DNA of 39,615 bases from assembly GCA_947476215.1 (NCBI GenBank), contig CANJQI010000031.1, positions 1 through 39,615 on the forward strand, read 5' to 3'. This DNA comes from Betaproteobacteria bacterium (GTDB lineage: Bacteria; Pseudomonadota; Gammaproteobacteria; Burkholderiales; SG8-41). The position numbers were made by a program, and so were the translations under genes. Of this stretch, positions 23,587 to 34,218 are shown in pieces. The notes beneath the pieces are model-generated. The model was not told the DNA's origin and ran no database searches. It worked only from the letters and a program-made list of their open reading frames with translations. How positions within the stretch are numbered: position 1 is the stretch's first letter; each line of letters starts with the position of its first letter.

Positions 23587-24507
23587 ATGGACATTACGGC
23601 AGTCAAGAATTACCTCACCAACCTGCAGGACCGCATCGTTGCGAGCCTCGCCGTGATCGACGGCAACCCTTTTTTTCACGACCGTTGGCAGCGTCCCGAA
23701 GGTGGCGGCGGTCAGAGTTGCGTAATCGAGGAAGGTAATGTATTCGAGCGCGGCGGCGTCAATTTCTCGCACGTGATGGGCACGACACTTCCGCCGTCCG
23801 CGACGGCAGCCCGCCCGGAGCTCGCCGGTCGCGGCTGGGAAGCAATGGGTGTTTCGCTGGTACTGCACCCGCGCAATCCATATATTCCCACCGTACACAT
23901 GAACGTGCGCTTTTTCGTCGCTCATCCCGGCAGCGGCCAAGACTCCAAGGAGCCGATCTGGTGGTTCGGCGGCGGCATGGATTTAACGCCGTATTACGGT
24001 TACGCGGAAGATGCCGCGCACTTTCACCGCAGCTGCCGCAACGCGCTCGATCCCTTCGGCGCCGATTATTTCTCACGCTACAAAAAGTGGTGCGACGAAT
24101 ATTTTTACCTGAAGCACCGCAAGGAACCGCGCGGCATAGGAGGCATTTTTTTTGATGACCTCAATACGCCGGAGTTTGAGACGTGTTTTGGGCTGCAGCA
24201 AAGCGTGGGCGATCATTTCCTGCCCGCGTATGCGCCTATCGTTGAGCGCCGCAAGGACGTGCCGTACGGCGAACGCGAGCGCGACTGGCAGGCCTACCGC
24301 CGCGGGCGCTACGTCGAATTCAATCTCGTCTACGACCGCGGCACGCTGTTTGGACTCCAGTCGGGAGGGCGCACCGAGGCCATACTCATGTCGCTGCCAC
24401 CGATCGTGAAATGGCGCTACGACTGGAAACCTGCGCCGGGGAGCGCGGAAGCCAGGCTGTATACCGAGTTTTTGATCGGGAAGGACTGGTTGGAAGAACA
24501 GGGTTAA
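23587..24507 (+). CDS. hemF: Oxygen-dependent coproporphyrinogen III oxidase
   Basis: HemF uses O2 to decarboxylate two propionates of coproporphyrinogen III, giving protoporphyrinogen IX. The 306-residue protein matches the family, with '[20 protein letters not shown]', 'GVNFSHVMG', '[10 protein letters not shown]', '[14 protein letters not shown]', '[15 protein letters not shown]' and '[20 protein letters not shown]', covering the dimer interface and substrate-binding residues. With hemB and hemL it is the third haem gene in the window. The O2-dependent form implies at least microaerobic life. No clear Shine-Dalgarno sequence precedes the ATG. Confidence 0.97.
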
Positions 24508-24684: not shown

Positions 24685-24835
24685 GTAGGTTGGGCTGACG
24701 AAGGAAGCCCAACATCACAGCCGGGGAAAAACGACAAATACGATATCGGTGTGTCAAACGCAACAGAAGTAACGTAGTCGTTTATCTTCTGATTCCGCCA
24801 AGATTTGTTGGGCTTCCTATGTCAGCCCAACCTAC
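24685..24835. repeat. REP-like inverted doublet downstream of hemF
   Basis: A 30-base arm at 24685-24714 (starting GTAGGTTGGGCTGACG) is repeated in inverted form at 24806-24835 with only two mismatches; 91 bases separate them. Each arm is itself a hairpin (GTTGGGCT/AGCCCAAC). The shape matches REP/BIME elements mobilised by RAYT transposases, but no transposase gene is present. The element fills part of a 432-base gap (24508-24939) with no convincing gene. A small GTGCCT/AGGCAC hairpin at about 24515-24528 lies just after hemF. Confidence 0.75.
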
Positions 24836-24848
24836 GAGTGGATGTTTG

Positions 24849-24905
24849 AAGATGTGTAGATACGCATGCTCCGAGGGAGAGGAACCGAAGGTGAGGGCGC
24901 AGTGT
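24849..24905 (+). repeat. Composite repeat flank shared with the lgt/sapC gap
   Basis: Bases 24849-24875 match the reverse complement of 38291-38317 at 24 of 27 positions. In both places this motif lies just outside the GTAGG end of a REP-like doublet. Here it runs on into a GGGAGAGG...GGTGAGGGCGC module related to the repeat after purD. Confidence 0.6.
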
Positions 24906-24939
24906 CGCTAATTTTGCAATACTCAATAATTATGAATGT

Positions 24940-25224
24940 ATGACGATAGTTCGTTACGGGGTATCGGAAGCAATAGTATCTCCGGCCGCCGGAGTGACTG
25001 GTTTCCTGCTGAAGCGTGCGGATGGATCGTTCTTCTTTCGCGTCTATGGTTCGAACGGTGATTTCACCGACTACGACATCCGGCACGATGATCTTGAAGT
25101 GACCATCTCTCCAGATGCGTTCGCATCGTTTTACCAGATCGGTGACCGGCTGCTCCTTGATCACAGCCCCGAAGTCCTCGGTTTGGAGATTGGCACTGAT
25201 GAACGGCTGAAGGAGCGGTCGTGA
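24940..25224 (+). CDS. Hypothetical protein, first gene of a DUF4160/DUF2442 cassette
   Basis: The 94-residue soluble protein looks mainly beta: 'GFLLKRADGSFFFRVYG', 'FTDYDIRHDDLEVTISPDAF', then 'DHSPEVLGLEIG'. I cannot name its family. It has no signal peptide or membrane segment. Its stop overlaps the GTG start of the DUF4160 gene by four bases, so the two are translationally coupled, and the pattern suggests a small functional module. It lies directly after repeat elements, consistent with an acquired block. Confidence 0.65.
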   Translation: MTIVRYGVSEAIVSPAAGVTGFLLKRADGSFFFRVYGSNGDFTDYDIRHDDLEVTISPDAFASFYQIGDRLLLDHSPEVLGLEIGTDERLKERS

Positions 25225-25460
25225 GCCCCACCATCTTCCGTGAGGACGGATTTCGTTTCTTTTTCTTCTCACGCGAGGAATTGCGGTTACATGTGCATGT
25301 CTATTGCTCCGATGGAGAGGCGAAGTTTTGGCTTGAACCCCACATCGAACTGGCGCAGAATTACGGTTTGAACGATCGCCAGATTCGGGCGGCTGAAACG
25401 CTGATTCGGAAACATGAAAATGATATCCGCAATGCCTGGCGCAAGCACTTTGGAGGTTGA
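25221..25460 (+). CDS. DUF4160 family protein
   Basis: The 79-residue protein carries the DUF4160 pattern: 'TIFREDGFRFFFFS', 'HVHVYCSDGEAKFWLEP', 'LNDRQIRAAETLIRKHENDI'. Such proteins are often found beside DUF2442 proteins, as here, and have been suggested to be toxin-antitoxin-like; no activity is established by sequence. The GTG start at 25221 is fixed by AAGGAG (25210-25215) five bases upstream and by the four-base overlap with the preceding gene. The 3' end overlaps the next gene by 47 bases. Confidence 0.8.
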   Translation: MSPTIFREDGFRFFFFSREELRLHVHVYCSDGEAKFWLEPHIELAQNYGLNDRQIRAAETLIRKHENDIRNAWRKHFGG

Positions 25461-25689
25461 AGTTACGAACGTCTCACCCCACGGCTTCTGGCTTATGCTG
25501 GAAGCCGATGAACTTTTTGTGCCTTTTTCGGAGTTTCCCTGGTTCAAGGACGCACCGATCGCAAAACTCACGAACGTCCAACGCCCACATCCGCATCATC
25601 TGTACTGGCCCGACCTTGATGTCGATTTGGCCATCGAATCTATCCGTCACCCAGAAGCGTTTCCGTTGGTGGCGCATTCCCACACGTAA
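25414..25689 (+). CDS. DUF2442 family protein
   Basis: The 91-residue protein has the DUF2442 pattern: 'VTNVSPHGFWLMLEADELFVPFSEFPWF' region (about 17-44), a middle helix, and 'HHLYWPDLDVDLAIESIRHPE', the characteristic end. The start is uncertain: ATGs at 25414, 25420 and 25432 all lie inside the DUF4160 gene. The overlap (29-47 bases) indicates coupled translation. Together with DUF4160 it forms a predicted toxin-antitoxin-like pair, the role of each being unknown. The gene ends 26 bases before the stop of the convergent kinase gene. Confidence 0.78.
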   Translation: MKMISAMPGASTLEVEVTNVSPHGFWLMLEADELFVPFSEFPWFKDAPIAKLTNVQRPHPHHLYWPDLDVDLAIESIRHPEAFPLVAHSHT

Positions 25690-25715: not shown

Positions 25716-27617
25716 TTAGCCCTGCCCAAACCACTTGCCGCGCAGCGATTTGATGCCATCGAGTATGCGACGCCCGACTGACGACTCGCGAACCTGCTCG
25801 GACCGTTGCACGCGGTGCGCATCCACGAGTATCGGCGCCTGCTTGTAGGTCAGGTAGCGTTGCAGCGCGGCGTGGACGTGCCCCTTCAGCAGGCGCACGC
25901 TCACCGGTTTGTTGAGAAAGCGGAAAATCTGCGCCTGATTGATGAGGTCGATGACCTGTTCGGAATCCGACGCCGTGGTGACGACGATGGTCAGGATCTG
26001 CGGGTTTTCCTGCTTCAAAAGCTTCAGCATTGCGGTCAGCTGATCGTGTCCGGCTTCAATGTCGGTGATCACCACCGCAATCTCTTGCTTTTGCATGACG
26101 GCCAGCGCGGTGTCGGTGTCGGGCGCGAACACTACCGGACATAGATCGCCTACCAGCTCGCGTGCGACGCGGAATATTTCTTCGTCGCGGTCGATGACCA
26201 GAACACCAGCGTCCATTTTTTGCGGCAGTTCAACCGCCGCGGATTTCGCATCGGCGAGTTCGAGGGCGATGGTGACGGCCTCGGCGACTATGGTTTGCAG
26301 TTCAGCGTTGTCCCACGGCTTGCTGATAAAACGGTAGACCTCACCGTCGTTGATCGAGCCGACGATCGCGGCAAGATCCGAGTAACCGGTCAGCAGTATG
26401 CGCACGCTGCGCGGCGAGATTTCGCGCGACTGGCGCAGCAATTCCACGCCCACCATCGCCGGCATGCGCTGATCGCTGATGATCACGTGCATCTGATATT
26501 TGCGCAGAAATTCGAGCGCCTTGTTGCCATCCGTGGTGGCAAATACATGATAACGGCTGCGAAACAACGACTTCAGCGCGGTCAGTATGCGTTCTTCGTC
26601 GTCGATGACCAGCAGGCGCGCCTTCTTGACGCTGGTATCGAGGCTGATGGCGCTATCCCCCCCAATGGGCGGAAGCGTTTCTCCTGCCGCGTTGGTGGGG
26701 GCGGGACCCGCATTCAGCAGACGCGCGGCGCTGAGCAGGGCAGCGCTGTCGGGAGCGGGCGCCGACACTTTCACGTCGGCAAGATCGGAATTAAGGGATA
26801 CCTCTATCGCTTCGCGAAACGCGTCGGCGAATTCGCGTGCGCTCTGAAAGCGGTCTTGCGGCTGCTTGGCGAGCGCTTTGTTCAGCACCCGGTTCATCAG
26901 CGGTGAAAGTTTGGGATTGATCAGGGACGCGTTCGGCGGCTGCTCGTTCAGGATCTGCTGCATCACGGCAGCGGAGTTTCCGTTGAACGGCTTGCGGCCG
27001 GTCAGCAACTCATAGGCAATAATGCCGACGGCAAACAGGTCGGCCAATGCGGTGACCGCGGTGCCGAGAAACTGTTCAGGCGACATATAGTGCGGCGTGC
27101 CGAGCACGTCGCCGACCTGCGTCAGATCGGAGGTGGAAATACGCGCAATGCCAAAGTCGCTGATCTTGAGGCCGCCGTCGCTGTTGATCAGAATATTGGA
27201 AGGCTTTATGTCCCGATGCACGACGCCTTCCGCGTGGGCGTGGCCTATGCCGTCCAGCAACTGGCGGATAATCTCGCCGGCATCCCTGATATCGTATTGC
27301 CCTTCCTGCGCCCAGTGTTGCGCCAATGTTTTGCCGCTGACCAGTTCCATCACGATATAGGCGATCTCGTCGTCCTCGCCGTAGTCGTAAATCTGTACGA
27401 TGCGCGGATGCATGAGGCGGCCGACGGCCTGGGCTTCATGCCGAAATCGGCTCATCACGTGTTGCAATTCGCTATCGCCGAGTGAAGACTTGGTGATGGC
27501 CTTGATGGCGACGCTGCGCGAAATGGCCGGGTCGAAAGCCTTATAGACGACACCCATGCCGCCCTTGCCGAGCACGCCCTGGATTTCGTACTTGCCGATT
27601 TTTTCGGGTTGCGTCAT
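25716..27617 (-). CDS. Ser/Thr protein kinase fused to two receiver domains
   Basis: This 633-residue cytoplasmic hybrid has an N-terminal Hanks-type kinase (about 9-272): Gly loop GKGGMG 17-22, ATP Lys39, Glu61, catalytic HRDIKPSN with Asp136, DFG 154-156, and 'GTPHYMSPEQ'. All key residues are present. A linker (about 275-330) leads to receiver domain 1 (about 333-455) with Asp339/Asp340, phosphoacceptor Asp382, Thr410 and Lys433. Receiver domain 2 (about 470-595) has Asp519 and Lys570, but 'IDRDEE' puts Arg477 where the second acidic residue is expected. No DNA-binding or membrane segment is seen. It starts four bases after a histidine kinase gene, its probable phosphodonor. The output is inferred to be kinase activity controlled by receiver phosphorylation. 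Confidence 0.92.
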   Translation of the reverse strand: MTQPEKIGKYEIQGVLGKGGMGVVYKAFDPAISRSVAIKAITKSSLGDSELQHVMSRFRHEAQAVGRLMHPRIVQIYDYGEDDEIAYIVMELVSGKTLAQHWAQEGQYDIRDAGEIIRQLLDGIGHAHAEGVVHRDIKPSNILINSDGGLKISDFGIARISTSDLTQVGDVLGTPHYMSPEQFLGTAVTALADLFAVGIIAYELLTGRKPFNGNSAAVMQQILNEQPPNASLINPKLSPLMNRVLNKALAKQPQDRFQSAREFADAFREAIEVSLNSDLADVKVSAPAPDSAALLSAARLLNAGPAPTNAAGETLPPIGGDSAISLDTSVKKARLLVIDDEERILTALKSLFRSRYHVFATTDGNKALEFLRKYQMHVIISDQRMPAMVGVELLRQSREISPRSVRILLTGYSDLAAIVGSINDGEVYRFISKPWDNAELQTIVAEAVTIALELADAKSAAVELPQKMDAGVLVIDRDEEIFRVARELVGDLCPVVFAPDTDTALAVMQKQEIAVVITDIEAGHDQLTAMLKLLKQENPQILTIVVTTASDSEQVIDLINQAQIFRFLNKPVSVRLLKGHVHAALQRYLTYKQAPILVDAHRVQRSEQVRESSVGRRILDGIKSLRGKWFGQG

Positions 27618-27621
27618 GCCA

Positions 27622-29382
27622 TCACGCGATAATTTGTGCTTCCGCGGGCGGTTTGGCCGGCAGCCACACGGTGAAGCGCGTGCCCTTGCCGGGTTGAGAC
27701 TCGACGCTGATGCGTCCGCCGTGCTGCTCGACTATCTTGAAGGATATTGAAAGCCCGAGGCCGGTGCCCTTGCCGATTTCCTTGGTGCTGAAAAACGGGT
27801 CGAAGATTTTGGGCAGCACGTCGGGCGCTATGCCTTTGCCGCTGTCAGCGACATCGACAGCTATGCCATTGCCTTCCTTGCGTGTGGCAAGGGAAATCGT
27901 GCCTACCCCTCCCTCCATGGCCTGAACCGCGTTGGTTATCAGATTAAGAAATACCTGATTGACCTGGGATGGCGAACAGATAACCGCGGGAATTTCCCCG
28001 AACTGCTTTTTGACGGTTACCCCTTTCAACAAATGCTTGGCCAGCAGCAGCGTGCTGTTCAATCCTTCGTTAAGATTGAAGCTTGTGACCTTGCTGCGGT
28101 CGAGGCGGCTGAAATCCTTCAGATTGCCGACGATTTCCGCCATCTGTCCCGTGCCGAACAGGCCATCCTTGACCAGACCGCCAAGTTCCGCAACGACTTT
28201 TTGCTGCTTCAACTGTCCAATTTTCGAGGATACCAGCGCGAACTGACGCGACAACTGCGCTGGATCCGCGCTGCCGCCTGCCTGCAGCAAGGCCAGCAAC
28301 TGTTCGGTGTCGGAAATGACCGTTTCGATGGCGGGCAGTTTGTCGGCAACCGCGCCGAGGCTGTTCTTGACGTAGGCGAGCGGCGTATTGATCTCATGTG
28401 CGACGCCCGCCACCATCTGGCCCAGCGACGACATTTTCTCTGACTGGATAAGCTGGGCTTCGGATTCCTTGAGGTGCTTCAGCGCTTCGGACAGTTCGCG
28501 GGTGCGTTCCTGCACGCGCAGTTCCAGGCTTTCGTTGGCGGCTTTCAGGCGCGCACCGAGGTAGGCAAGCAGTATCAACAGTGCGCCGGCATAGTAAATC
28601 AGATAGACACGGAAACGCTCCTTGTCCTGCAGTGTCGCCTCAAGCTCGCGGTTGAACGAAAATGTGAGAGTATCCAATCGCGGTCCCGAAGACATGTAAG
28701 CAAGCTTGTTATAGAGCGCTTGTTCGGCAGGGCCGTGCTTTAGCAGCAGCTCGCCCGCATTGTGTGTCTGTTCGGCCTTGACACGCAGATTGTCGGGCAG
28801 GTTAGCCGCCGCGGTCTGCAGGTCATTCAAGGTGGAAATCAATGCGTTCTGCCGTGTTTCGGTGACCAACCAATAATACTGTTGTGCAATCCCAGGCAAA
28901 CCGTTGGTGACCGTATCCAGCGGCACGGAACGTTGCTTGAGTTCCGCCGTCTGAGTGCGCAATTCCGCAGTATTGCGCAACAGGCCATCGAGTCCGGCAC
29001 TGGTGCTGGCATTTGCGGATCTGAACTTTTCGAACAGATCGGCTTTCTCGCGCACGGCCTTGGCCAATTCAGGCAACGCCGCCGCGAGCGACGGACTGGC
29101 GGTGCGTTGTGCTGCCTCGGTCAGACTCTGCAGCGCCTTGTTTGCCGCCGCGGCGCGGTCGCTGTCTTGTCTCTTGTTGGCGACCGATTCGAGCCGCAGG
29201 CGCAGCATTTCGACATCCCAGCGATTGTCGATCTCCTTGAGTTCGCGTAAAAAGCCCATGATTTCATTTTGTTCTCGTAAATCAACAGCTTGCGTCTTAT
29301 TGTAGAGATAGACCAGCGCCGCAACCATGGCCAGCGCCGCGATCGCGAACAAGCCATTTTGCAATGCATCGGATTTTTTCAT
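27622..29382 (-). CDS. Membrane sensor histidine kinase
   Basis: The 586-residue kinase has two membrane segments (about 10-27 and 258-277) enclosing a helical periplasmic sensor of roughly 230 residues. A coiled coil (about 278-315) links to the HisKA domain with His329 in 'VAGVAHEINTPLAYVKN' and an ATPase domain with N box 'NLITNAVQAM' (Asn484), G1 DSGKG (513-517), the F box 'FDPFFSTKE' and G2 GTGLGLS (539-545). All catalytic motifs are intact. The start overlaps the livF stop (ATGA), and the Ser/Thr kinase-receiver gene follows after four bases. Ligand is unknown; context suggests the Liv transporter or its substrate. There is no receiver or HPt of its own. Confidence 0.93.
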   Translation of the reverse strand: MKKSDALQNGLFAIAALAMVAALVYLYNKTQAVDLREQNEIMGFLRELKEIDNRWDVEMLRLRLESVANKRQDSDRAAAANKALQSLTEAAQRTASPSLAAALPELAKAVREKADLFEKFRSANASTSAGLDGLLRNTAELRTQTAELKQRSVPLDTVTNGLPGIAQQYYWLVTETRQNALISTLNDLQTAAANLPDNLRVKAEQTHNAGELLLKHGPAEQALYNKLAYMSSGPRLDTLTFSFNRELEATLQDKERFRVYLIYYAGALLILLAYLGARLKAANESLELRVQERTRELSEALKHLKESEAQLIQSEKMSSLGQMVAGVAHEINTPLAYVKNSLGAVADKLPAIETVISDTEQLLALLQAGGSADPAQLSRQFALVSSKIGQLKQQKVVAELGGLVKDGLFGTGQMAEIVGNLKDFSRLDRSKVTSFNLNEGLNSTLLLAKHLLKGVTVKKQFGEIPAVICSPSQVNQVFLNLITNAVQAMEGGVGTISLATRKEGNGIAVDVADSGKGIAPDVLPKIFDPFFSTKEIGKGTGLGLSISFKIVEQHGGRISVESQPGKGTRFTVWLPAKPPAEAQIIA

Positions 29383-30089
29383 GCGTGGTCACCCAGGTAC
29401 GCTTTTCTGACCGCCGGATCAGCCAGCAGCGCGGCAGAGTTGTCGTGCGTAACAATTGCTCCACTTTCCATCACGTAGCCCCTGTGACACATTTCAAGCG
29501 CCAGTTTTGCGTTTTGCTCTACCAGCAGTATTGTCACACCGTCCGCCGCGATGGTGCGTATTGTGTCGAAAATTTTTCGCACCATCAGGGGAGCAAGGCC
29601 CATGCTGGGCTCGTCGAGCAATAACAGGCGCGGCTTGCTCATCATGGCGCGCGCAATCGCCAGCATCTGCTGTTCGCCGCCGGACAGCGTGCCGCCGGTT
29701 TGACGGCGCCGTTCCGCAAGGCGTGGAAACAGCGCATAGACGCCATCGCGGTCGGTGCGCACGGCGGCTGAGTCAGGGCGTCGGTAAGCACCCATATTGA
29801 TGTTTTCCTCGACTGTCAGGCGCGAAAATATGCCGCGGCCTTCCGGCACCAGCGCGATGCCCAGCGTTATGCGCTGATGCACCGGCACCGTGATCAAGTC
29901 GACCCCATCGTAACGGATGCTGCCTTCGGTGGGGCGCAGAAGTCCGATCAATGCCTTGAGCGTAGTTGTCTTGCCCGCGCCGTTGGCGCCTATCAAAGCG
30001 ACCATTTCCCCGGCACGGACCGCGAAGTCTATGCCCTTGACCGCGTTGATGCCGCCGAACGATACGCACAAGCCGCTGACCTCAAGCAA
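29379..30089 (-). CDS. livF: Branched-chain amino acid-type ABC transporter ATPase LivF
   Basis: The 236-residue ATPase powers a HAAT-family importer together with LivG. It has Walker A 'GANGAGKTT', signature 'LSGGEQQMLAIARA', Walker B 'LLLDEPSMGLAP' and a switch His region ('ILLVEQN' is typical of LivF). A TTG start at 30089 is chosen: GGAGG lies five bases upstream, it overlaps livG by eight bases, and the length equals that of E. coli LivF. The frame is open to 30158, but an ATG start upstream would overlap livG by over 40 bases. The 3' end overlaps the histidine kinase start. Confidence 0.93.
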   Translation of the reverse strand: MLEVSGLCVSFGGINAVKGIDFAVRAGEMVALIGANGAGKTTTLKALIGLLRPTEGSIRYDGVDLITVPVHQRITLGIALVPEGRGIFSRLTVEENINMGAYRRPDSAAVRTDRDGVYALFPRLAERRRQTGGTLSGGEQQMLAIARAMMSKPRLLLLDEPSMGLAPLMVRKIFDTIRTIAADGVTILLVEQNAKLALEMCHRGYVMESGAIVTHDNSAALLADPAVRKAYLGDHA

Positions 30090-30849
30090 GCTCGCCTCCG
30101 AGATAGGCTTCAATGACGGCGGCATCGCTGCGTACCAAGGCAGGCGTGCCCTCGGCAATTTTTCTGCCGTAATCGAGCACCAGGATGCGGTCGCACAGCC
30201 CCATCACCAGCTTCATGTCGTGCTCGATCAACAGAATCGTGGTCCCGTCGCCCTGTATGCGCTCAAGCAGCGTGCGCAGCGTTGCCGTTTCGGTCGCGTT
30301 CATGCCGGCAACCGGTTCATCGAGCGCCAGCAGCTTGGGCTCGGTGGCGAGCGCGCGGGCGATTTCGAGCCTGCGCTGGTCGCCGTACGACAGGTTGTGT
30401 GCGACCTCGTTGCCGCGCGCGGCGAGCCCGACGTAATCGAGCAACGCCCATGCGCGCGCGTGGATGGCAGCTTCTTCCGCGCGCGTGGCGGCGCTGCGCA
30501 GGATCGCGCCAAAAATACCGGCGCGCGTGCGCACGTGACGGCCGACCATGACGTTTTCCAGTGCACTCATATTGGCAAACAGCCGGATGTTCTGAAACGT
30601 GCGTGCAATACCCGCCGCGGCAACCTGGTGCGGGGCCTTGACATTGAGTGGTTTGCCATCAAACCTGAAGCTGCCGCTGTCGGCGCGGTAAACACCGGTC
30701 AACAGGTTGAAGAATGTCGTTTTGCCTGCGCCATTGGGACCGATCAGGCCGTATATCTCGCCGCGCGCTATGGTAAAGGAAACGCCAGATAGCGCCTCAA
30801 TGCCACCGAAGCGTTTGCCGACCGCCAGAACTTCGAGCAACGCGCTCAT
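30082..30849 (-). CDS. livG: Branched-chain amino acid-type ABC transporter ATPase LivG
   Basis: The 255-residue ATPase (the E. coli length) has Walker A 'GPNGAGKTTFFNLLTG', 'NLSYGDQRRLEIARALA', Walker B 'LLALDEPVAGMN' and the extended C-terminal helical part with 'LIEHDMKLVMGLCDRILVLDYG' typical of LivG. The ATG at 30849 overlaps the livM stop by four bases (ATGA). It pairs with LivF at the cytoplasmic face of LivH-LivM. The frame runs to 30888, but that extension would lie within livM. Confidence 0.93.
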   Translation of the reverse strand: MSALLEVLAVGKRFGGIEALSGVSFTIARGEIYGLIGPNGAGKTTFFNLLTGVYRADSGSFRFDGKPLNVKAPHQVAAAGIARTFQNIRLFANMSALENVMVGRHVRTRAGIFGAILRSAATRAEEAAIHARAWALLDYVGLAARGNEVAHNLSYGDQRRLEIARALATEPKLLALDEPVAGMNATETATLRTLLERIQGDGTTILLIEHDMKLVMGLCDRILVLDYGRKIAEGTPALVRSDAAVIEAYLGGELA

Positions 30850-31910
30850 TCGTCGGTCAATTCCCGCTTGCGTACTTTGGATGGCCACAGTCCGGCCGGG
30901 CGAAACAGCATCATCAGCATCAGCGCAAGCCCGAATAGCAGCATGCGTATGACTTCAGGTTCGATGATCAGGTGCCCAAACAAATAGCGCTGCATGGGAT
31001 CCACCGTATGGCGTAGTAGCTCCGGAACAAAGGACAGCAACAACGCGCCCACGATCACGCCCCAGATATTGCCCATGCCACCCAGCACCACCATGGATAA
31101 CACCATGACGGATTCAACCAGAACGAAGCTCTCCGGGCTGATGAAACCCTGAATGGCCGCAAACATGCCGCCAGCTATACCGCCGAACGACGCCCCCATC
31201 CCGAACGCCAGCAACTTGACGTGTGTGGTGTTGATGCCCATCGCTTGCGCCGCGACCTCGTCTTCGCGTATAGCCTGCCAGGCGCGCCCTATGCGCGAAT
31301 TTTCGAGCCGCAGGTTCACCACGATTGCAACGAGCAGCACCAGTAGCAACAGGTAATAGTATTTGATCGGCCCACTGAAATTGAGACCCAATATCACTTC
31401 GCTCTGGCTGAAACTGAAATCGCCGATGCGCATGGGATCGATGCGCGAGATACCCTGCGGCCCGTTCGTAATGTTTACCGGTTGCGACAGATTGTTGAAA
31501 AAAATGCGCACAATTTCGCCAAAACCCAGCGTAACGATCGCAAGGTAGTCGCCGCGCAGTTTCAATGTCGGCGCCCCGAGCAGGACACCGAACACGCATG
31601 CGGCGAGTGCACCGATCGGCAGGATGATCCAGAACGGCAGATGCAGGTTGAATTGCGGGGAGGCCAGCAGCGCATAGGCATATGCACCGACACCATAAAA
31701 AGCAATGTAGCCGAGATCCAGCAGGCCGGCGAAACCGACCACGATGTTCAGGCCCAGCGCCAGCAATGCAAACAGTATTGCCAGGTTGGTAACGCGCACC
31801 CAGGTAGTGCCGGCGGTGGCAAGCACGAACGGCAGAGCGATCAGCGCGCACGCAATCAGCGCCAGGCCTGCCCAGCGTAGCGCCGGGTATGTTTTAAGTT
31901 TATCGGCCAT
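30846..31910 (-). CDS. livM: Branched-chain amino acid-type ABC transporter permease LivM
   Basis: The 354-residue inner-membrane permease has around nine hydrophobic segments and the family core 'LGLNIVVGFAGLLDLGYIAFYGVGAYAYALL', followed by 'LRGDYLAIVTLGFGEIVRIF' and the ATPase-contact loop 'RAWQAIREDEVAAQAMGIN' (EAA-like). It ends with a basic tail 'RPAGLWPSKVRKREL'. The ATG at 31910 lies 13 bases after livH; the frame extends to 31985 inside livH. It forms the channel with LivH. Confidence 0.93.
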   Translation of the reverse strand: MADKLKTYPALRWAGLALIACALIALPFVLATAGTTWVRVTNLAILFALLALGLNIVVGFAGLLDLGYIAFYGVGAYAYALLASPQFNLHLPFWIILPIGALAACVFGVLLGAPTLKLRGDYLAIVTLGFGEIVRIFFNNLSQPVNITNGPQGISRIDPMRIGDFSFSQSEVILGLNFSGPIKYYYLLLLVLLVAIVVNLRLENSRIGRAWQAIREDEVAAQAMGINTTHVKLLAFGMGASFGGIAGGMFAAIQGFISPESFVLVESVMVLSMVVLGGMGNIWGVIVGALLLSFVPELLRHTVDPMQRYLFGHLIIEPEVIRMLLFGLALMLMMLFRPAGLWPSKVRKRELTDE

Positions 31911-31923
31911 TATCGGGACCAGA

Positions 31924-32850
31924 TTATGCGCGTTCGCCGATGCGCTCGCCGAGCAACCCCGAGGGCCTGAATACCAGCACCGCAATCAGTACCATAAAAG
32001 CGAACACGTCCTGATAGTTGCTGCCGAAAACATTGTTGGTGAGGTCGCCCATGTAACCGGCGGCTAGTGCTTCAACGACGCCCAGCAGCATGCCGCCCAG
32101 CATGGCGCCGGCAAGATTGCCTATGCCGCCCAGCACCGCGGCGCAAAATGCTTTCAGGCCCAGCAGTGAGCCCATCGTGTAGTGGGCGATGCCGTAGTAA
32201 GTGCCGACCATTACGCCGGCGACCGCCGCTAGGGCCGCGCCTATCATGAAAGTCGCGGCGATAACGTGATTCACGTTGACACCCATCAGGCCGGCAATCG
32301 GCGCGTTCTGGGACGTGGCGCGCATGGCAACACCTAATTTTGTACGATAGACGATGGCCGTCAAGGCTATCATCAGTACCACGGAAGTCATGATGATCGC
32401 GATTTGTATCAGTGTAATGGTCGCGCCTGCGACCGGAAAAACCATGTTCGGAATGATCTGCGGAAACGCCAGCGGATTGCGACTCCAGATCATCATCGCG
32501 ACCTGCTGCAGCACGATGGATGCGCCGATAGCGGTGATCAACGGCGCCAGACGTGGTGCTTTGCGCAATGGCCGGTAAGCAAACAGTTCCAGCGCATAGC
32601 CGATGGCAGTGCATGCTGGAATCGCTGCCGCGGTACCGATCAGCACGATCAAGAGCGGAGGCAGTGGGGTGTTCGCTGCCAGCCAGCCTATCACCGTGAA
32701 AGCGACCATCGCACCCACCATGACGATCTCGCCATGCGCGAAGTTGATCAATTGGATAATACCGTAGACCATCGTATAACCCAGCGCCACGATGGCGTAG
32801 ACGCTGCCCAGCGTGAGTCCGTTGATGATCTGCTGCAGAAAAATGTCCAT
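31924..32850 (-). CDS. livH: Branched-chain amino acid-type ABC transporter permease LivH
   Basis: The 308-residue permease has about eight membrane segments and the LivH hallmark 'GLTLGSVYAIVALGYTMVYGI', 'QLINFAHGEIVMVGAM' and the cytoplasmic loop 'RATSQNAPIAGLMGVNVN'. The ATG at 32850 is preferred to a GTG at 32862 that lies in the preceding hairpin. The gene is separated from livJ by a 16-base-pair stem-loop, which probably lowers permease expression relative to the binding protein. Confidence 0.93.
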   Translation of the reverse strand: MDIFLQQIINGLTLGSVYAIVALGYTMVYGIIQLINFAHGEIVMVGAMVAFTVIGWLAANTPLPPLLIVLIGTAAAIPACTAIGYALELFAYRPLRKAPRLAPLITAIGASIVLQQVAMMIWSRNPLAFPQIIPNMVFPVAGATITLIQIAIIMTSVVLMIALTAIVYRTKLGVAMRATSQNAPIAGLMGVNVNHVIAATFMIGAALAAVAGVMVGTYYGIAHYTMGSLLGLKAFCAAVLGGIGNLAGAMLGGMLLGVVEALAAGYMGDLTNNVFGSNYQDVFAFMVLIAVLVFRPSGLLGERIGERA

Positions 32851-32860
32851 GCTGTCAGCC

Positions 32861-32896
32861 ACAACAAAACGGCACCCGCAGGTGCCGTTTTGTTGT
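32861..32896 (-). terminator. Stem-loop between livJ and livH (partial terminator)
   Basis: A perfect 16-base-pair inverted repeat (32861-32876 with 32881-32896) has a four-base loop and a GC-rich upper stem, with T-rich ends (TTTTGTTGT) on either strand. Between a binding-protein gene and its permease gene such a structure typically attenuates read-through and stabilises the upstream mRNA. Confidence 0.75.
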
Positions 32897-32916
32897 AATG
32901 GGCGTGAGCCCGGCCA

Positions 32917-34152
32917 CTATTTATTCTCCGTTGTAGCGGGCGTTGGTGCCGCCGATTTTATGAAATCCTCGAATTTTGTTGACGCCCCGTTCTTGATAAT
33001 CGCCAGCGGCGCGATCTTGCCGCCTTTCATGATGAAGATCGTGATTTCGGCGTTCTTGCGATCGCCCTTGTCGTCGAATTCGATGACGCCCGTTGCGCCC
33101 TTGTGGTTGGTTTTCACGAGTTCGGGCAGATATTTCGCGGGTTCCGCCGAATTGGCTTTTTGCATAGCCGCGATCAGCAGATTGGTGCTGTCATAGGTAA
33201 ACGGCGCATACTGAATAGGGTCAGACTTGAATCTGGCCTTGAAGTCGCTGAGAAACTTCGGATTGGCCGCTTCCACCGGGATGCCCGCCTGCGAGCACAC
33301 AAATCCTTCGGCGGCATCACCGGCAAGATCTTTCATGGTATTCGTGCATGCGCCGTCGCCGAATGCGAAGACCACCTTGATGCCGAGTTCGCGTGCTTGT
33401 TTGAGCAGCGGACCAGCGGTCGCGTCCATGCCACCGTAAAACACGGCGTCGGGCATCTTGCCCTTGATCTTGGTCAGGATCGCTTTCCAGTCGCGCGTGT
33501 CCTTGCTGCCTTTTTCGCGCGGCAGCACCTTGATGCCGGCCGCCGTCAGTGTTTTTTCCACTTCATTGCCGAGGCCTTCGCCATAGGCGGTGGCATCATC
33601 GATCACGGCAGCCAGTTTGGGTTTGTATTCGGATGCAAGATAGGTGGCAATCGCGGGACCTTGCTGATCGTCTCGACCGACGACACGAAATACCGACTTC
33701 AGGCCCTGTTCGGTGAGTTTGGGATTGGTCGACGTTCCGGTCACCATCGGAATGCCGGCTTGCGCGTACACGGTCGAAGCGGGAATCGACACACCGGAAT
33801 TGAGATGGCCGATGACGCCGGCGACTTTGGCATCAATGAATTTCTGCGCGATGATGGGGCCGCGATCCGGCTTTTCTTCGTCATCCTCTGCGAGCATTTC
33901 GAACTTGACTTTCTTGCCGTCGATGGTGACGCCCCTGGCATTGGCTTCCTCTATCGCCAACCGGGTACCGTTCTCGTTGTCTTTGCCCAGATGCGCGATG
34001 CCGCCGGTGAGCGGTGCGGCGTGGCCTATCTTGACGATGAGTTCGAGGGGTGCGGGTGCAGCTTTTGGAGCAGGTGGAGGTTCGTTTTTGCCGCAACTTG
34101 CGACCGCCAAACCAATCAGGGCGCTTAGCGCGAGCAACCGGCGATTGTTCAT
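32917..34152 (-). CDS. livJ: Branched-chain amino acid-type substrate-binding lipoprotein
   Basis: The 411-residue periplasmic binding protein (type I fold, HAAT family) delivers ligand to LivHMGF. It is a predicted lipoprotein: hydrophobic stretch then lipobox 'LAVASC' with Cys20, followed by a Pro/Ala-rich tether. The binding fold contains 'IGHAAPLTGGIAHLGKDNENG', 'GVIGHLNSGVSIPASTVYAQAG' and 'FRVVGRDDQQGPAIATYL'. Soluble LivJ proteins of E. coli lack a lipid anchor, so this one is tethered. The ATG at 34152 has GGGGAT four bases upstream; an extension to 34218 would run into the promoter. Substrate cannot be fixed: amino acids, amides or urea are all known for this family. Confidence 0.92.
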   Translation of the reverse strand: MNNRRLLALSALIGLAVASCGKNEPPPAPKAAPAPLELIVKIGHAAPLTGGIAHLGKDNENGTRLAIEEANARGVTIDGKKVKFEMLAEDDEEKPDRGPIIAQKFIDAKVAGVIGHLNSGVSIPASTVYAQAGIPMVTGTSTNPKLTEQGLKSVFRVVGRDDQQGPAIATYLASEYKPKLAAVIDDATAYGEGLGNEVEKTLTAAGIKVLPREKGSKDTRDWKAILTKIKGKMPDAVFYGGMDATAGPLLKQARELGIKVVFAFGDGACTNTMKDLAGDAAEGFVCSQAGIPVEAANPKFLSDFKARFKSDPIQYAPFTYDSTNLLIAAMQKANSAEPAKYLPELVKTNHKGATGVIEFDDKGDRKNAEITIFIMKGGKIAPLAIIKNGASTKFEDFIKSAAPTPATTENK

Positions 34153-34189: not shown

Positions 34190-34218
34190 ATTATCCGTAG
34201 GCACCCACGGGTTGTCAA
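34190..34218 (-). promoter_or_regulatory. Sigma70-type promoter of the liv/kinase operon
   Basis: On the minus strand TTGACA (34213-34218, perfect) is followed by 17 bases and GATAAT (34190-34195, five of six). The predicted start near 34183 leaves a 30-base leader with GGGGAT before the livJ ATG at 34152. It is the best promoter in the window. Confidence 0.75.

What the first reader, a model, noticed from the sequence alone, without database searches (positions are those of the whole stretch)
25716..34152. Liv-type transporter operon that continues into a histidine kinase and a Ser/Thr kinase-receiver hybrid
livJ-livH-livM-livG-livF, the histidine kinase and the kinase-REC-REC gene form one minus-strand run. 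livM/livG and livF/histidine kinase overlap by four bases, livG/livF by eight, and the histidine kinase and hybrid are four bases apart. Only one good promoter is seen, before livJ. HAAT transporters are well known, but I know of none described with this signalling pair. The inference is that the sensor's periplasmic domain reads substrate or transporter state, phosphorylates the receivers, and thereby gates Ser/Thr phosphorylation, so that import is reported as protein phosphorylation.
Basis: partly seen in the sequence, partly recalled or inferred. Interest (0 to 1): 0.75.

Follow-up and report, generated by a model that had tools for sequence, protein, structure and literature searches.

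The report
Transporter-linked relay switching a protein kinase
In many little-studied bacteria, the genes for an amino-acid importer sit beside a membrane sensor and a switchable protein kinase; the pairing is real and recurs widely, but whether the sensor actually reads the importer is untested.

Summary
The gene run is real as described: livJHMGF, a DAHL-domain histidine kinase (HK) and a Ser/Thr kinase-REC-REC hybrid, minus strand 25716-34152. Two corrections: the second REC is a pseudo-receiver, and a terminator-like hairpin, present in 44 of 46 spacers compared, separates livJ from livH. The HK-hybrid pair is an autonomous module: the HK lies directly upstream of 114 of 114 distinct hybrids. 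Linkage to liv is widespread but optional: 66 linked, 39 not, 9 undetermined, over five families of the order. Two results favour a functional tie. In the window's lineage the liv genes have another history than the hybrid, yet the layout persists. In five genomes the locus has lost kinase core and hybrid, but an intact membrane-bound DAHL protein, under purifying selection, remains directly behind livF. Against it: the pair also persists unlinked, once (G050) without any close Liv permease found. Best reading: a His-Asp relay switching a Ser/Thr kinase, its DAHL sensor recruited to a Liv-type transporter in part of the Betaproteobacteria. New variant of a known kind.

The parts
32917..34152 (-). 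livJ, HAAT substrate-binding protein; N-terminus ends in a lipobox-like LAVASC (motif recalled)
   Evidence: Peripla_BP_6 E 7e-56; best PDB sequence relatives 3ip5/3ipc, then the E. coli Leu and Leu/Ile/Val binding proteins
34190..34218 (-). sigma-70-like promoter before livJ
   Evidence: 11 of 12 matches, spacer 17; consensus match only
32861..32896 (-). terminator-like hairpin between livJ and livH (16-bp stem, 4-nt loop)
   Evidence: z -5.3; a stem of at least 8 bp in 44 of 46 distinct spacers, window included, against 0.95 on average (largest 4) in 40 shuffles
31924..32850 (-). livH permease (ATG start; a GTG at 32862 would lie inside the hairpin)
   Evidence: BPD_transp_2
30846..31910 (-). 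livM permease
   Evidence: BPD_transp_2
30082..30849 (-). livG ATPase
   Evidence: ABC_tran
29379..30089 (-). livF ATPase (TTG start, 8 bp overlap with livG)
   Evidence: ABC_tran; sequence
27622..29382 (-). sensor histidine kinase: TM 6-24, DAHL 33-258, TM 259-277, HisKA with H329, HATPase
   Evidence: H329 in 38 of 38 aligned
28609..29286 (-). periplasmic DAHL domain of the HK
   Evidence: PF19443, 73.9 bits against cut-off 38
25716..27617 (-). hybrid: Ser/Thr kinase + REC1 + pseudo-REC2
   Evidence: AlphaFold mean pLDDT 81.6
26844..27590 (-). Hanks-type Ser/Thr kinase domain; K39, E61, H134 and D136, N141, DFG 154-156 intact
   Evidence: 39 of 39 aligned
26286..26612 (-). REC1, full active site D339 D340 D382 T410 K433
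   Evidence: 39 of 39 aligned
25863..26204 (-). REC2, pseudo-receiver: D519, T547, K570 mostly kept, second acid lost (R477)
   Evidence: acidic at 477 in 4 of 39; pseudo-receiver criterion in PMC12632262 (passage)
23587..24507 (+). hemF, convergent neighbour that marks the same chromosomal site in many relatives (name given from recall; not searched in a family library)

Best explanation
The HK and hybrid form a two-component relay whose output is Ser/Thr phosphorylation. The DAHL domain, an all-helical periplasmic domain between two membrane helices, controls autophosphorylation at H329. The phosphate goes to D382 of REC1, and this switches the kinase domain on the same chain. REC2 is a non-phosphorylated pseudo-receiver, probably for dimerisation or docking. 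In the window's family and at least four other families of the order this portable module is attached to a Liv/HAAT importer, with the DAHL domain as the contact: it senses ligand-loaded LivJ or the transporter's working state. Where kinase core and hybrid were lost, the DAHL protein can stay behind as a membrane companion of the transporter. Shown here: gene order, its conservation, intact active sites, pseudo-REC2, different histories of liv and hybrid genes, stand-alone DAHL proteins under purifying selection. Inferred: phosphotransfer, direction of kinase control, contact of DAHL with the transporter, ligand and kinase substrates.
For: The HK directly precedes the hybrid (same strand, within 400 bp) in 114 of 114 distinct hybrids of at least 560 aa; the loci had been found with hybrid sequence alone. 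Kinase and REC1 active sites are invariant in 39 of 39 aligned hybrids, H329 in 38 of 38 HKs. livF-HK-hybrid recurs in 40 of 42 family loci, and liv-linked hybrids occur in families f6, f13, f23 and f31. In the liv tree the window's subgroup falls with f6/f23, while two congeners (L027, L032) fall with most of the family; holding the nine same-genus rows together is rejected (p-AU 2.5e-47). In the hybrid tree, grouping with f6/f23 is rejected (8e-8), and so is one clade with the rest of the family (3.5e-6). DAHL-only ORFs of 343-364 aa follow livF in 5 family genomes: two membrane helices each, DAHL over cut-off, no HisKA or HATPase, open frame overlapping the livF end, dN/dS 0.22-0.42 within genera.
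Against: 39 of 114 distinct hybrids are not liv-linked; their pairs sit beside unrelated genes, among them glyA-nrdR-ribD-ribE, rpe or carA (names judged by eye from protein starts). G050 (92% complete) keeps the pair but its best LivM match is 34% identical. A LivM at E 1e-100 or better is in 53 of 57 hybrid genomes but also in 224 of 342 others (my cross-count), so co-occurrence is weak evidence. 12 of 79 liv operons in the liv tree have sequence past livF but no HK or hybrid. SBP genes beside sensor kinases are not always functionally linked (PMC11113362, abstract). In L138 (f13) an opposite-strand gene lies between livF and the HK. A shared chromosomal site could be partly inherited neighbourhood. 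The clades tested were chosen after seeing the trees.
Confidence: 0.5

Rival explanations
1. The HK-hybrid pair is an autonomous relay for a general envelope or metabolic signal, such as a small ligand bound directly by DAHL. It lies beside liv only because the locus (liv, HK-hybrid, hemF) was inherited together or is handy for co-expression.
For: 39 of 114 hybrids unlinked, in several contexts; G050 has the pair without a close Liv permease; g9 loci, G046, G020 and G040 have liv without the pair; DAHL is less conserved than the kinase core (mean 35% against 67% identity to the window, 37 HKs).
Against: Order kept although liv genes and hybrid have different histories; intact kinase-free DAHL proteins kept right behind livF in five genomes of two genera.
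Confidence: 0.35
2. Control runs the other way: the hybrid kinase, driven by an unrelated signal, phosphorylates Liv subunits or their regulators to set amino-acid uptake.
For: Same gene neighbourhood; the transporter would be a natural target.
Against: It does not explain why DAHL without kinase core or hybrid stays beside livF.
Confidence: 0.12
3. REC2 is a second functional receiver and the hybrid uses two phosphorylated Asp, as the first reader implied by 'receivers'.
For: D519 in 38 of 39, T547 in 37, K570 in 36.
Against: The position of the directly metal-binding second acid is non-acidic or a gap in 35 of 39; about 80% of pseudo-receivers are non-acidic there (PMC12632262, passage).
Confidence: 0.08

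Closest known systems
Liv/HAAT high-affinity branched-chain amino acid importer of E. coli
   Same: five subunits, families Peripla_BP_6, BPD_transp_2, ABC_tran
   Different: no subunit reaches the NCBIfam cut-offs (for example LivH 236 of 379 bits), so the substrate is open; signalling genes attached
P. aeruginosa PA3346 with its kinase PA2824 (REC + Ser/Thr phosphatase; passage in PMC12189002)
   Same: a HK phosphorylates a REC that controls a Ser/Thr-acting enzyme on the same chain
   Different: output is a phosphatase, not a kinase; no transporter named in the passage
HstK of cyanobacteria (reference title seen; the rest recalled)
   Same: joins His and Ser/Thr kinase signalling
   Different: both kinases in one chain, not HK plus REC-kinase hybrid
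SBP-sensing kinases such as TorS/TorT, and flux-sensing BceS/BceAB (recalled)
   Same: sensor kinase tied to a binding protein or transporter
   Different: output is transcription; the DAHL profile finds no TorS among PDB sequences (best 4k0d, E 0.049)
Response regulators of the NosR type (NF053512, named c-di-GMP phosphodiesterase by NCBIfam)
   Same: REC1 matches model positions 1-116
   Different: below cut-off (204 of 400 bits); Ser/Thr kinase as the other domain

Membership tests
HAAT/Liv transporter | SBP, two BPD_transp_2 permeases and two ABC ATPases together | tested here: met
   these families all over Pfam cut-offs
HAAT/Liv transporter | identity with E. coli LivHMGF by NCBIfam cut-offs | tested here: not met
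   LivH 236/379, LivM 303/366, LivG 278/362, LivF 265/441 bits
Sensor histidine kinase | HisKA with phospho-His plus HATPase | tested here: met
   H329 in 38 of 38
Response regulator | REC with DD, D, T, K | tested here: met
   REC1, 39 of 39
Response regulator, second receiver | same quintet in REC2 | tested here: not met
   acid at 477 in 4 of 39
Hanks-type Ser/Thr kinase | catalytic Lys, alpha-C Glu, HRD, Asn, DFG | tested here: met
   39 of 39, except HRD Arg 37 of 39
TorS/TorT-like SBP-sensing kinase | sensor domain homologous to TorS | tested here: inconclusive
   no TorS among PDB sequence hits of the DAHL profile; the 50 Foldseek rows shown were kinase-core structures apart from one WalK-YycH model
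TorS/TorT-like SBP-sensing kinase | binding protein contacts the sensor domain | not testable with these tools
   single-chain prediction only
Transporter flux-sensing kinase (BceS type) | kinase activity depends on transporter turnover | not testable with these tools
   needs an experiment
HstK | Ser/Thr and His kinase in one chain | tested here: not met
   separate genes

The most novel reading that the evidence does not exclude
DAHL is an accessory membrane subunit of a Liv-type importer that physically reads loaded LivJ or the transport cycle. In its full form it feeds a His-Asp relay that switches a Ser/Thr kinase, so nutrient import is reported as protein phosphorylation. In stripped lineages it remains alone with the transporter.
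Probability: 0.3. Interest if true: 0.8.

Novelty: new variant of a known kind. Interest (0 to 1): 0.6.

Why it matters
Bacterial two-component systems mostly end in transcription or cyclic-di-GMP, and the signals of most bacterial Ser/Thr kinases are unknown (general knowledge). Here a conserved gene pair predicts a direct His-Asp to Ser/Thr switch with an obvious partner to test, in a betaproteobacterial group seen here mainly as metagenome bins. The kinase-free DAHL proteins behind livF give a simple way to ask whether a sensor domain can be a transporter component.

Tried and rejected
Rejected: both receivers equal; a full hybrid outside the order in the class sample (13 of 369 genomes matched at 1e-50; only the window's own match covers model positions 2-221, the other 12 genomes' matches start at position 52 or later in ORFs of 304-394 aa; up to 8 candidates scored per genome, so this is not exhaustive); co-occurrence with LivM as strong support, since the transporter is common anyway.

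Led nowhere: a DAHL literature search gave 0 papers; the 50 Foldseek rows shown for the HK model were kinase-core structures apart from one WalK-YycH model aligned over 503 columns, so DAHL's fold relatives stay open; Galperin's two response-regulator reviews are not held; the PDB search with the DAHL profile gave nothing below E 0.04. Papers: I saw listings (two gave none), one abstract with outline (PMC11113362), and passages of PMC12632262, PMC9239204, PMC1262709, PMC12471899, PMC12189002 and PMC6213207; no whole text.

Counts and dropped rows: a first count gave 111 distinct hybrids, 64 linked, 38 not, 9 undetermined, but its filter wrongly left out hybrids whose alignment ran past the natural stop. 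The recount gives 114, 66, 39 and 9; the trees were built on the 111. Left out of the recount: contig-cut hybrids (L033 = L128, L035 = L144, L065), a 422-aa kinase ORF in L085/L157, and L160 (G156), a 45% match in a broken frame with no HK nearby, a possible exception to the rule that the HK adjoins. In f13 two tandem hybrids per locus count separately. 'Undetermined' means less than 3 kb seen upstream. The 57 of 399 order genomes is my reading of the printed rows: 55 genomes with a match starting at position 1-2, plus G218 and G284, whose fetched loci hold HK and hybrid; weaker rows were not printed and up to 7 candidates per genome were scored. 53 of 57 is my comparison; G214, G218, G431 and G455 lack the LivM match.
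Full report
WHAT IS THERE. The minus-strand run is as reported: livJ 32917-34152, livH 31924-32850, livM 30846-31910, livG 30082-30849, livF 29379-30089, HK 27622-29382, hybrid 25716-27617, with the stated overlaps. Pfam gives Peripla_BP_6, two BPD_transp_2, two ABC_tran, DAHL-HisKA-HATPase, and Pkinase with two Response_reg stretches. The best promoter-like site, 11 of 12, is before livJ; the number of sites found is near chance (5 against 4.0). A perfect stem of at least 8 bp is in 44 of 46 distinct livJ-livH spacers, window included, against 0.95 on average in 40 dinucleotide shuffles (largest 4); 38 of 46 hold the core CGGCACC and GGTGCCG. The two without it are L149 and L156, both f13. 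My inference is a device for making more binding protein than membrane parts, so 'one promoter, one operon' needs RT-PCR.

THE SIGNALLING PAIR. In 39 aligned hybrids the Ser/Thr kinase residues K39, E61, H134, D136, N141 and DFG, and the REC1 residues D339, D340, D382, T410 and K433, are invariant. REC2 keeps D519 (38), T547 (37) and K570 (36) but has an acid at position 477 in only 4. That position corresponds, by my alignment to REC1, to DD2, the direct metal ligand, non-acidic in about 80% of pseudo-receivers (PMC12632262, passage). H329 is invariant in 38 HKs. The HK model shows an all-helical sensor region, and the window HK has two membrane helices by hydropathy.

HOW FAR THE LINKAGE GOES. 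A query over the kinase-REC junction finds the hybrid in 43 of 74 genomes of the window's family (my count of matches at E 1e-13 or better, window included). In the 42 other loci the HK lies upstream of the hybrid in all; livF lies upstream of the HK in 40, one (G005) being cut by a contig end and one (G050) lacking liv there. hemF is the convergent neighbour in most of these loci. In a sample of 399 genomes of the order I count 57 with the hybrid. Fetched loci show liv linkage in families f1, f6, f13 (with two tandem HK-hybrid pairs), f23 and f31 (there hemF lies upstream of livJ), and no linkage in the fetched loci of f3, f11, f19, f24, f25, f30, f37, f40 and f48. Of six titled Gallionella, Sideroxydans or Sideroxyarcus, L086 and L098 are unlinked; L082, L083, L094 and L095 show no livF but end too close upstream to tell; the two titled Gallionellaceae, L084 and L090, are unlinked. 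Over everything, 114 distinct hybrids: 66 linked, 39 unlinked with at least 3 kb seen upstream, 9 undetermined; the HK is directly upstream in 114 of 114. One weak, broken hybrid-like match, L160, has no HK nearby and was left out. In the class sample no full hybrid appeared outside the order.

TWO TESTS OF WHETHER LINKAGE MEANS SOMETHING. First, histories. The hybrid tree (111 rows) puts the window in a 36-row clade (20 unlinked, 8 linked, 8 undetermined), apart from the other genera of its family and from f6/f23. The liv tree (LivH+M+G, 79 rows) puts the window's subgroup of seven rows in a 20-row clade with f6 and f23, and two congeners, L027 and L032, on the other side with most of the family; seven further family rows (L037, L040, L049, L059, L062, L064, L173) lie on the window's side with f13, so liv genes moved more than once. 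Forcing the nine same-genus rows together is rejected (p-AU 2.5e-47); forcing the hybrids into one clade with f6/f23, or with the rest of the family, is rejected (8e-8 and 3.5e-6). So transporter genes and signalling genes seem to have been exchanged separately, yet the same order at the same site is found. The groups were named after seeing the trees, so the p-values are optimistic, and these are quick trees; the likelihood differences are large (343, 161 and 173). L027's own hybrid is not in the tree; it is 72% identical to the window's. Second, decay. Family genomes without the hybrid mostly keep liv. In some (G046, G020, G040) livF is followed directly by hemF. In five (G019, G021; G047, G048, G049) an open frame of 343-364 aa overlaps the livF end: membrane helix, DAHL, membrane helix, short tail. 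Its start codon is not fixed. Pfam finds DAHL above cut-off in all five and no HisKA or HATPase in any. dN/dS is 0.22, 0.31 and 0.38 among G047, G048 and G049, and 0.42 for G019-G021 (Nei-Gojobori, dS high in the wider pairs). A kinase-free sensor kept beside livF in two genera is hard to explain unless DAHL does something for or with the transporter, or with another partner in the same membrane.

AGAINST. The pair lives without liv neighbours in 39 of 114 cases, next to varied genes. Of 25 genomes with an unlinked pair that I tested, 23 have a LivM of 63-84% identity elsewhere, G218 has one of 50%, and G050 only 34%. As a LivM at E 1e-100 or better is also in 224 of 342 hybrid-free genomes of the order, this co-occurrence says little. 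In L138 (f13) a gene on the other strand lies between livF and the HK. The literature warns that SBP genes beside sensor kinases can be unrelated in function (PMC11113362, abstract).

MECHANISM AND STANDING. I take the pair as a His-Asp relay with Ser/Thr kinase output (about 0.8) and think it somewhat more likely than not that DAHL reads the Liv system where linked; together about 0.5. The recount did not change these odds. Nearest in logic is the P. aeruginosa regulator PA3346, a REC that controls a Ser/Thr phosphatase (PMC12189002, passage). In the listings of searches (two returned nothing) I saw no description of a HK plus REC-kinase hybrid attached to a HAAT transporter; they cover only open-licence papers and I read few of the papers listed.

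Noticed in passing
32861-32896: Terminator-like hairpin between livJ and livH; stem in 44 of 46 distinct spacers, with changed but still pairing stems (AAGGGCACC/GGTGCCCTT) in f6.
   Followed up: yes
34093-34152: LivJ starts with a lipoprotein-like signal (LAVASC), unlike the soluble E. coli LivJ (both recalled).
   Followed up: no
L133, L134, L135, L136, L138, L149: Family f13 has two tandem HK-hybrid pairs behind liv (L201, L200 and L156 are the same contigs as L133, L135 and L136).
   Followed up: partly
L157 (G142, same contig as L085): A second, 422-aa kinase ORF lies just before the HK-hybrid pair.
   Followed up: no
L160 (G156): A 45%-identical hybrid-like stretch in a broken frame, without an HK beside it.
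   Followed up: no
24832-25571: Small genes between the hybrid and hemF; on the plus strand they resemble DUF4160/DUF2442 pairs (recalled, not searched).
   Followed up: no
L069, L074, L085, L097, L102, L118, L122: Metagenome bins titled Chitinophaga, Bordetella parapertussis or Lysobacter carry this locus; the titles look like misassignments.
   Followed up: no
G052:C22, G022:C6, G047:C544: Other, much larger ORFs (875-1276 aa) with strong DAHL matches in the family, not part of this locus.
   Followed up: no
L150, L184, L190 (f23): Two livJ-like genes in tandem before livH.
   Followed up: no
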